64,000 bases of DNA, from assembly GCF_012911975.1 (NCBI RefSeq), contig NZ_SMDQ01000008.1, forward strand, positions 1 to 64,000, in the 5' to 3' direction. The translations under genes were made by a program, and so were the position numbers. Positions 14,420 through 33,450 of this stretch are shown in pieces (the first letter of the stretch is position 1; the number at the start of each line of letters is the position of its first letter). Under the pieces are notes generated by a model. The model was not told the origin of the DNA. It ran no database searches and was given only the letters and a program-made list of their open reading frames with translations. The stretch is from Nodosilinea sp. P-1105. GTDB lineage: Bacteria; Cyanobacteriota; Cyanobacteriia; Phormidesmidales; Phormidesmidaceae.

Positions 14420-15604
14420 ATGGATGGTAATGTGCTGAACCCACTGCATTGGCTGGTGCTTCCCCTGGCCGACAACGGCTTGGGCCAGGGCGATCGCGTC
14501 TTTGGGCTCAAGCTCTGGTTGGCCACAATTTTGGTTGTGGGCCTGCCCCTGGGGCCGCAGCCAGGGCTGGCCCAGGACATAGCTCCTCAGGACATAGCTC
14601 CTCAGGACACCATGGCCCAGAATACCCAGGCCCCGACTTTCTGGAGTCAAGCCTTTACCGTGGACCCCTCCCCTGCCCTGGAGGGGCTGACGTTTGATCA
14701 CCCGCCGCTGCAACGCTCCCAGGTCGATTTTTTTGTTGCCGAGTCTCCACCGTTTGATCATGCCCTAACCACCTCCCCCCCTGAACGACTCCAGACCCAG
14801 GGTTGTTCCCTTGTTGAAAAGGAATATGGCCTGTACGGATTTTGGCCCCCAAACCCCCAACTTTGGGGGCTTCAGATCCCCCCAGAATTGGGGGGCGGGG
14901 GGGCAAAGTCGCACCGTGGGCTTTTCTCCCATGACCATGAAACAGCCCCCCCTGAACAACTCCAGACGGGAGGGCATCAACCCGCGATCGCCCAGCAGTC
15001 AGCCCCAGACCTCGATCTCGACCCCGCCATCATTGAGGGCAGTCCTGTGCTGCAGCGGTGGTTACAGGGGCCGCCAGACATTACCCATGAGATTCGGCAC
15101 CAGCCCAGCTTTCGGCCCCGATTGCGGGTTGGCTATGCCCACTTCCCATCTACGGATGGCATTGGCGGCATTGCCCTGGGGGTTGACGATCTGTTTGTAT
15201 GGCCCGGCACAGGGCTAACCCTCAGCGGCAGCTACAGTCGCGGTGGGGGCGGACGGCGGCAAGACTACGGCGCTGAAGCCCGATATTACCTGCTACCCCT
15301 GGGGGGCTATGTCAACCTGGCTCCAACGGTGGGCTACCGTGCTCTCACCACCCCGGCCTACAACACCGACGGCATCAGCCTGGGGCTACGCCTGATGCTG
15401 GTACCCTCCCGGGGCGGGGCAGCGGACTTAGCCATTAGCCACCAGTGGGTTGCCGTCGGCGGCGATCGCGAAGTAGGCGTCACCCAATTTAGCTTGGGCT
15501 ATGCGGTCACCCGCCAACTGCGCCTGGGCACCGACCTGCAGTTCCAAAACTCCCAGTTCGGCCAGGATAGCCGCCTGGGCCTCTCCTTAGAGTGGCTGCT
15601 GTGA
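14420..15604 (+). CDS. Secreted/outer-membrane beta-barrel-like protein with in-frame MITE insertion
   Basis: About 394 residues. A hydrophobic N-terminus (LWLATILVVGLPLG) with a possible cleavage site (GLAQD) is followed by a low-complexity linker with a direct repeat (DIAPQDIAPQD). The C-terminal 160 residues have alternating, Gly/aromatic-rich strands (RLRVGYAHF, LTLSGSYSRGGG, LGLRLMLVPS, LGLSLEWLL), suggesting a small outer-membrane barrel; no named family is recognised. Residues ~127-183 are encoded by a 153-bp mobile element plus its 18-bp duplication (171 bp, exactly 57 codons). ATG 14420 follows the acsF terminator. The stop lies within the first of four 21-bp tandem repeats. Confidence 0.65.
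   Translation: MDGNVLNPLHWLVLPLADNGLGQGDRVFGLKLWLATILVVGLPLGPQPGLAQDIAPQDIAPQDTMAQNTQAPTFWSQAFTVDPSPALEGLTFDHPPLQRSQVDFFVAESPPFDHALTTSPPERLQTQGCSLVEKEYGLYGFWPPNPQLWGLQIPPELGGGGAKSHRGLFSHDHETAPPEQLQTGGHQPAIAQQSAPDLDLDPAIIEGSPVLQRWLQGPPDITHEIRHQPSFRPRLRVGYAHFPSTDGIGGIALGVDDLFVWPGTGLTLSGSYSRGGGGRRQDYGAEARYYLLPLGGYVNLAPTVGYRALTTPAYNTDGISLGLRLMLVPSRGGAADLAISHQWVAVGGDREVGVTQFSLGYAVTRQLRLGTDLQFQNSQFGQDSRLGLSLEWLL
14780..14968. mobile_element. MITE-like element, copy 1, with 18-bp flanking direct repeat
   Basis: The element proper spans 14798-14950 (153 bp). The left end is cagggttgttcccttgttg, and the right end reads as its imperfect inverse (…accatgaaacagcccc). It is flanked by cctgaacgactccagacc (14780-14797) and cctgaacaactccagacg (14951-14968), 16 of 18 identical, interpreted as a target-site duplication. 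It is internally rich in short C-run/G-run inverted repeats. No transposase is encoded. The second copy, in opposite orientation, is at 32662-32850. Confidence 0.75.
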
Positions 15605-15673
15605 TTTACAGAGTGGCTGTTGTGACTTACAGAGTGGCTGTTGTGACTTACAGAGTGGCTGCTGTAATCTATC
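15590..15673. repeat. Four tandem copies of a 21-bp repeat across a stop codon
   Basis: The unit gagtggctgYtgtgaYttaca begins at 15590, 15611, 15632 and 15653 with few changes; the fourth copy is most diverged. The first copy carries the last codons and TGA of the outer-membrane-like protein; the last runs to within a few bases of the aroG-type gene end. Confidence 0.85.
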
Positions 15674-32661: not shown

Positions 32662-32850
32662 CTTAGTTATTAGGATCTTGTAGGGCTGTTTCATGGTTGT
32701 GAGCAGAAAGCTAGGCCACAGCTTTGCCCCCCGCCCCCTAATTCTGGGGGGATCTGAAGCCCCCAAGTTTGGGAGTTTGGGGGCCAAAGCCTGTACAGGC
32801 AATATTCCTTTTCAACAATGAAACAACCCTGCTTAGTTATTGGGGTCTTG
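32662..32850. mobile_element. MITE-like element, copy 2, with 19-bp flanking direct repeat
   Basis: The element proper is 32681-32831 (151 bp), reversed relative to copy 1. Its ends are tagggctgtttcatggttg and, inverted, cagggttgtttcattgttg (16 of 19 matches). It is flanked by cttagttattaggatcttg (32662-32680) and cttagttattggggtcttg (32832-32850), 17 of 19 identical. The right duplication contains the stop and last codons of exbD; the left duplication repeats them. No transposase is encoded. Confidence 0.78.
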
Positions 32851-33450
32851 GGGGGTTCGAGGGACCTCAAAGGGGCTCTGGGGAGAGGGGGCAGGGTCGC
32901 TAAATGGGTCGCTGGGCTCAAGGGGAAAAGGTTCATCTTCCGGGAAAAAGGGATCCGTTCCTGGAAAATCTTCAAAATCCTCAGGAAAAGGATCGAGGGC
33001 TTCAGGATCCCCCAGGTCCGCATCTCTAGGTAATGTGGCTAAGGCAACCCGATCGCCCCCCACAGACCGCAACAAATCAAGCACGGTAACCACGTCTTCA
33101 TAGCGGGCATCCCGAGAGGCGTACAGCACAATCAGCCCCCCAGGATTGACCTGACTAAATTGCAGCAAGACGTCATAGAGCAGATCCAGGGTTACCGGTT
33201 GCTGATCGAGATAGGTTTGGCCCAGGCTGTCAATGCTGACATAGAGGCGATCGCCAACCGCCCCGTCTACCTGCCCGGGGATGGGCTCGCCGGTCTCTGC
33301 GGCCGGTAAATCTAGCTCAATGGCTTGCTGACGGGTTAAACCCACCGCTGCCAAAATAAAAAAGGTGAGAATACAAAAAATGACGTCAATCAGCGGCACA
33401 ATCTCCAGCCGTACGTCTTCGGACGGGGTTTCAAGTAGATCTACTTTCAT
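32833..33450 (-). CDS. exbD: ExbD/TolR family biopolymer transport protein
   Basis: A 205-residue protein with one N-terminal transmembrane helix carrying the essential Asp in [18 protein letters not shown], and a periplasmic domain ending around residue 140. The last ~60 residues are a Pro/Asp/Glu/Phe-rich tail ([19 protein letters not shown]) absent from standard ExbD. With ExbB it converts proton motive force into motion of an outer-membrane partner; no tonB gene is in the window. Its start overlaps exbB by 4 bp. The last codons and stop lie in one arm of the duplicated target of MITE copy 2. Confidence 0.9.

What the first reader, a model, noticed from the sequence alone, without database searches (positions are those of the whole stretch)
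14780..14968. MITE with an 18-19 bp target duplication inserted in frame into a barrel-protein gene
A 153-bp element with imperfect 19-bp inverted ends sits inside the coding region at 14420-15604, flanked by an 18-bp direct repeat (16/18 identical). A second copy (32662-32850) has its own, different, 19-bp direct repeat (17/19). Two unrelated flanks that are duplicated to the same length argue for real target-site duplications, much longer than the 2-12 bp of most IS families (the IS1202 group is one exception I know of). Element plus duplication is 171 bp, so exactly 57 codons are added in frame and the host gene stays open. The element does not encode a transposase.
Basis: partly seen in the sequence, partly recalled or inferred. 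Interest (0 to 1): 0.7.

Follow-up and report, generated by a model that had tools for sequence, protein, structure and literature searches.

The report
Mini-transposon with unusually long target duplications
A short mobile element without its own transposase jumped into a cyanobacterial gene and left an 18-19 base copy of its landing site on each side, about twice the usual length; it fits a branch of a common transposon family whose members mostly leave about 19 bases.

Summary
Two elements of ~151-153 bp with CAGGGYTGTTTCAT-type ends are flanked by unrelated 18-19 bp direct repeats that chance does not explain. A third copy, in same-genus G042, has 16/19. The IS1202 hint fails: the ends are those of ISAs1-family insertion sequences. 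Of 120 TIR-paired loci collected, 70 have 8-12 bp duplications, 19 have 15-20 and 31 are unscored. The long ones include exact 19/19 in 5 of 5 fetched copies of each of two genomes. All ten long-duplication transposases in the tree lie in one 14-row clade without short ones: one change, bootstrap 89 / SH-aLRT 86. An intact IS of this clade lies in same-genus G041. A related MITE in G003 shows both lengths among 12 copies. I read the window elements as MITEs of this long-duplication branch. Against it: no such IS was found in the window's draft genome, end similarity alone does not choose the branch, and four of seven both-ended copies in the genus show no long repeat. The 57 in-frame codons look incidental.

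The parts
14420..15604 (+). host gene (394 aa from ATG; N-terminus looks like a signal peptide, then a variable linker and a conserved C-terminal part); barrel identity not confirmed
   Evidence: matches in 26 of 26 genus genomes incl. own; no Pfam or NCBIfam match at 0.01
14780..14797 (+). left arm of target duplication, copy 1 (18 bp; 19 bp if read from 14779)
14798..14950 (+). MITE copy 1 (153 bp; CAGGGTTGTTCCCTTG ... CATGAAACAGCCC); 152 bp if the arms are read as 19
14951..14968 (+). right arm of target duplication, copy 1 (16/18)
14838..14908 (+). G+C-rich palindromic core; the part matched in some other genera of the family
32662..32680 (-). arm of target duplication, copy 2 (19 bp)
32681..32831 (-). 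MITE copy 2 (151 bp; CAGGGTTGTTTCATTGTTG ... CATGAAACAGCCCTA), 84% identical to copy 1
32832..32850 (-). other arm of target duplication, copy 2 (17/19); holds the last codons and stop of the upstream gene
32833..33450 (-). gene whose 3' end was hit by copy 2 (ExbD/TolR-like by recall, not scanned); the element lies just after its stop codon

Best explanation
The elements are MITEs (non-autonomous copies) with ISAs1-type ends. They were moved in trans by a transposase of an ISAs1-family branch whose two strand joinings on the target are about 19 bp apart instead of about 10. Repair of the gaps leaves the 18-19 bp direct repeats. Shown: ends, copies, repeats, and a transposase clade with matching types of ends and ~19-bp repeats, one intact member of which is in a same-genus genome. 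Inferred: that this clade, not another enzyme, moved the window copies, and that active-site spacing in the transpososome sets the stagger. Copy 1 landed in a variable linker and happens to keep the frame; copy 2 landed at a gene's stop codon.
For: Repeats beyond chance at two unrelated sites at the same element boundary, and a third copy in same-genus G042 with 16/19. IS found by an end search encode ISAs1-family transposases: over the cut-off for full-length G003 copies and for L259 and L391. L259, an intact IS with CAGGGTTGTTTC ends, has 18/19. Exact 19/19 in 5 of 5 fetched copies of G324, 5 of 5 of G224, L351 and L321; 20/20 in L357. Lengths over 120 TIR-paired loci: 70 at 8-12, 1 at 15, 18 at 18-20, 31 unscored. 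One clade, one change, UFBoot 89 / SH-aLRT 86. L341/L391 in same-genus G041: ends CAGGGTTGTTTCATGTTG / CAGGGCTGTTTCATGTTA, repeat 15/17; G026, same genus, has 98%-identical pieces at contig ends. The 12 exact 19-mers start C and end G, as do both arms of copy 2.
Against: No IS of this branch was found in the window's draft genome: 0 matches of the L391 protein at E<=1e-8 in G000. The ISAs1 matches there are one decayed copy and two contig-end pieces that were not placed on the tree. By end similarity, short-duplication L399 and L319 (32/38) rank above L341 (31/38, tied with many short ones), so ends do not choose the branch. Four of seven both-ended copies in the genus show no long repeat. Clade support is moderate; 4 of its 14 rows have no scorable repeat, one has 15 bp. 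Further IS with CAGGGTGGTTTCAT ends outside the tree also lack a clean repeat (L311, L356; L331 has reverse-complement flanks). The 15-bp (L335) and 20-bp (L361) arms do not follow the C..G rule. No empty site with a single readable arm was found.
Confidence: 0.74

Rival explanations
1. The stagger is not fixed by the transposase: one ISAs1-type enzyme can join the two ends about one or about two helical turns apart, giving ~10 or ~19 bp for the same element.
For: A single MITE family in G003 has both lengths: 4 of 12 full copies ~18-20 bp, 6 of 12 at 9-11 bp, 2 unclear.
Against: On the tree no row of the long clade has 8-12 bp and no row outside it has 15-20. Movement of the G003 MITE by two transposases explains the mix as well; G003 holds short-branch IS and L311, an IS with long-branch ends.
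Confidence: 0.18
2. The direct repeats predate the elements: they are tandem or palindromic repeats between which the element landed, not duplications it made.
For: Several targets of the long clade are palindromic; in L341 the two arms are different near-perfect palindromes. Inner palindromy of the 12 exact 19-mers is 37 of 96 pairs against 24.6 in shuffles. The G042 arms are G-rich and simple in sequence.
Against: Unrelated, non-palindromic 19-mers are exactly duplicated (e.g. L338, L366, L370). No orthologue locus at either window site holds both arms.
Confidence: 0.06
3. The element belongs to the IS1202 family, known for 16-28 bp duplications.
For: Length of the duplication only.
Against: IS1202 ends are 5'-TGT; these are CAGGG. 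IS with such ends match the NCBIfam ISAs1 model over its cut-off.
Confidence: 0.02

Closest known systems
ISAs1 family insertion sequences (NCBIfam NF033564; Pfam PF13808 + PF01609)
   Same: CAGGG ends; IS with such ends encode ISAs1-family transposases over the curated cut-off
   Different: the window elements encode no transposase; duplication 18-19 bp instead of the 8-12 measured here for the other branches (family range 8-10 bp recalled from ISfinder)
IS1202 family, long-TSD subgroup (PMC10132070, passages read)
   Same: unusually long target duplications (16-28 bp in that paper)
   Different: 5'-TGT ends there, CAGGG here; that paper models the ISAjo2 transposase of the family on Tn7 TnsB
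Rickettsia palindromic elements and other in-frame MITEs (PMC10969869, passages read)
   Same: ~150 bp element inserted in frame in a coding region
   Different: here 1 of 2 window copies is in frame; the other adds 170 bp after a stop codon

Membership tests
MITE | short element with terminal inverted repeats, no transposase, several copies | tested here: met
   13 distinct places in own genome, two with both ends
MITE | target duplications flank complete copies | tested here: inconclusive
   3 of 7 both-ended copies in the genus (two window, G042); not in L047, L048, L059, L064
ISAs1 family | ISAs1-type transposase | tested here: met
   met for candidate parents L259 and L391 (176.6 and 197.8 bits, cut-off 70); the MITE itself encodes none
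ISAs1 family | ends beginning CAGGG/TAGGG with inverted repeats (recalled; also seen in the IS collected here) | tested here: met
ISAs1 family | 8-10 bp target duplication (recalled) | tested here: not met
   18-19 bp in the window; ~19 bp in one clade, 8-12 in the rest. Hence called a variant branch, not a plain member
IS1202 family | outer ends 5'-TGT | tested here: not met
   ends CAGGG; family feature from PMC10132070
IS1202 family | IS1202-type transposase | not testable with these tools
   the MITE has no transposase; candidate parents gave only ISAs1 and a weak IS1380 match in NCBIfam

The most novel reading that the evidence does not exclude
ISAs1-type transpososomes have two discrete target staggers roughly one helical turn apart (8-12 and 18-20 bp, almost nothing between). 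The switch arose once, in a clade seen here in cyanobacteria, without a large change in the spacing of the catalytic motifs, and a MITE can show both depending on the enzyme or conformation that moves it.
Probability: 0.35. Interest if true: 0.72.

Novelty: new variant of a known kind. Interest (0 to 1): 0.55.

Why it matters
Target-duplication length is used as a family trait because it reports how far apart the two active sites sit on target DNA. Neighbouring clades of one family that differ by about one helical turn, with similar catalytic spacing, would let one map what sets the stagger. It also warns that MITE searches that expect a fixed duplication length will miss copies. None of the paper searches run listed a report of 19-bp duplications in ISAs1; the library is open-access only, I read passages of few papers, and ISfinder was not searchable.

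Tried and rejected
IS1202 as parent: rejected on ends. End similarity to choose the parent branch: not decisive. Plasmid collection search with copy 2: no match. Order-level search only repeated the 63 family genomes. Empty sites in G027: element absent at both sites, but the linker (site 1) and the 3' end (site 2) have diverged too far to read one arm. A search for the arms in 25 orthologue loci per site gave only stray matches (three 17-mers with 4 mismatches at site 1; two 19-mers with 5 at site 2). A difference in catalytic spacing between branches was sought by simple motif matching and not found; it failed on 3 rows. Pairing G026 contig ends into one copy was not possible. Papers: passages only of PMC10132070, PMC10969869, PMC8763236, PMC9366434, PMC3281130 and PMC9208149, and one reference entry of PMC9330008; none of what I saw states a 19-bp ISAs1 duplication. 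The rest of the literature was seen as search listings. Rows dropped: 158 TIR-pair rows became 131 after removing identical flanks; the histogram keeps ends matching at 14 of 20 or better (120), and some of its 31 unscored rows are spurious TIR pairs. Tree rows for frameshifted IS are C-terminal fragments.

Full report
What is there. The window is part of a 6.0-Mb, 195-contig draft, G000. G040, in the same genus, has a contig of the same length as a Nodosilinea sp. BSH.14 contig carrying the same IS, so the window is probably from a Nodosilinea-like cyanobacterium (inference). Copy 1 lies at 14798-14950 with 18-bp arms (16/18), or equally 152 bp with 19-bp arms (17/19). Copy 2 lies on the minus strand at 32681-32831 with 19-bp arms (17/19). 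The element matches 13 distinct places of the genome (15 rows, two of them the reverse reading of the palindromic core), and adds two more. Only the two window copies keep both ends (by eye; by motif, which tested 14 of the 15 places and not C1:124641). In the family, 10 of 63 genomes match at E<=1e-6.

Chance and other copies. The flanks of the two window copies score far above random pairs (1 and 2 of 3000 reach them), and >=16/19 at the same geometry occurs at 5 of 200,000 random window positions. Among copies in relatives, four with both ends (L047, L059 in G033; L048, L064 in G032) score at chance level. A fifth, in G042 (L177), has a shorter body and a degraded right end; its flanks match at 16/19, against 0 of 78,961 other pairs of 19-mers in its flanks (the tested pair itself was outside that scan) and 0 of 50,000 random positions in the locus. 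So three of seven both-ended copies in the genus carry the long repeat. The other four may be older or rearranged; they count against a uniform trait.

Orthologues. The host gene has matches in 26 of 26 genus genomes including its own. No locus of the other 25 genomes carries both arms, and none shows the element by a search for its left sub-terminal sequence; two of those loci (G024, G025) end before the linker. In G027 the linker is element-free but diverged. At site 2 the gene is 95% identical in G027 over 198 residues; its 3' flank lacks the element and the pair of arms. No locus of the other 25 genomes carries both arms at site 2; one (G041) ends 21 bases after the match. So nothing shows both arms before insertion, but no clean single-arm empty site was seen either.

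Finding the parent. Their frames match the NCBIfam ISAs1 transposase model: typed 120-residue parts reach 39-53 bits (under the 70-bit cut-off), full-length copies pass it. Most of these G003 copies have clean 10-11 bp duplications. With the ISAs1 model 30 of 60 family genomes match at E<=1e-20. L259 from G016 (same transposase and arms in L309, Leptolyngbya sp. Heron Island J) stood out: 1192 bp, CAGGGTTGTTTC ends, arms CCCGCGGGAGAAGGGGTGG / ..TAG, 18/19.

The long-duplication branch. The L259 transposase led to 25 loci in the named genome collection and to matches in 43 of 388 class genomes at E<=1e-30 (at most five candidates scored per genome). Exact 19/19 arms: 5 of 5 fetched copies in G324, 5 of 5 in G224, L351 and L321 (Nostoc indistinguendum). 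Others: L357 20/20, L361 20 at fixed boundaries, L335 15/15, L340 16/18, L354 15/18, L342 16/20, L341 15/17. No clean repeat in L310, L311, L313, L355, L356 and L359; L331 has reverse-complement flanks. Over 120 TIR-paired loci with fixed boundaries the lengths are 8 (2), 9 (3), 10 (50), 11 (11), 12 (4), 15 (1), 18 (2), 19 (13), 20 (3), unscored 31. Copies within one genome are not independent. In a tree of 52 transposases (29 short, 10 long, 13 unscored) the ten long rows fall in a 14-row clade that holds no short row: one change of state, UFBoot 89 / SH-aLRT 86. Its neighbour in the quick tree is a short-duplication clade (L181, L319, L399).

Targets. The 12 exact 19-mers start with C and end with G; the symmetry of that table is imposed by counting both strands. 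Inner palindromy is 37 of 96 pairs against 24.6 expected; 44 of 20,000 shuffles reach it. Several are hairpin-like. Copy 2's arms obey the C..G rule; the 15-bp L335 and 20-bp L361 arms do not.

A MITE with two lengths. In G003 a ~132-bp MITE with such ends has 12 full copies: L204, L207, L210 11/11; L211 10/11; L214 and L215 8/9; L206, L208, L212, L216 ~18-20 with mismatches (L212 14/18 without gaps); L209 and L213 unclear. A full-length relative in G004 (L205) has no clear repeat. Its right end resembles those of L311, an IS of the same genome with long-branch ends, while short-branch IS are abundant there. Movement by two enzymes is my preferred reading.

Mechanism. By general knowledge of DDE transposases, both ends are joined to opposite strands of the target and the stagger is copied as the duplication. 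I infer that the long branch places its two active sites about two helical turns apart. Catalytic-motif spacings found by simple matching were similar in both branches, so a quaternary difference is likelier than an inserted domain; this is inference.

Limits. The window elements are tied to the long branch by duplication length and family-level ends, not by shared internal sequence or by end similarity alone. An intact IS of the branch exists in same-genus G041 and pieces at 98% identity in G026; none was found in G000. The ISAs1 pieces in G000 are a decayed copy on C118 and two contig-end pieces (C34, C20) not placed on the tree. The 57 in-frame codons hold for copy 1 only.

Novelty. The 8-10 bp range for ISAs1 is recalled. 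Open-library searches listed nothing about 19-bp duplications in this family. I rate it a new variant of a known kind.

Noticed in passing
L276, L302, L319, L399, L263, L351, L355, L357, L359 (IS interiors): Many ISAs1-family transposase genes are split into two overlapping frames at about the same profile position. In 9 of 11 examined the overlap holds a run of 7-8 A just after the second catalytic Asp motif (by eye); L264 has 5 A and L322 no overlap. Looks like programmed frameshifting or transcriptional slippage.
   Followed up: partly
L202 (G000:C118), L200 (C34), L201 (C20): The window's own genome holds only partial ISAs1-family transposase matches: a decayed copy with CAGGGCCATTTCATTCT / CAAGGCTATTTCATTCT ends, and two pieces at contig ends.
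   Followed up: partly
L341/L391 flanks (G041:C370): The two arms of this IS are different near-perfect 19-nt palindromes whose differences are paired (compensatory-looking), as if the hairpin itself were kept.
   Followed up: no
15590-15665: Tandem repeats of ~23-24 bp (acttacagagtggctgttgtg) run from the 3' end of the host gene into the intergenic region (by eye).
   Followed up: no
14573-14610: In-frame 15-bp tandem repeat (CAGGACATAGCTCCT) in the host gene upstream of the element; missing from G027.
   Followed up: no
14838-14908 and family genomes: The G+C-rich palindromic core occurs without the ends in some other genera, so core and ends may have separate histories.
   Followed up: no
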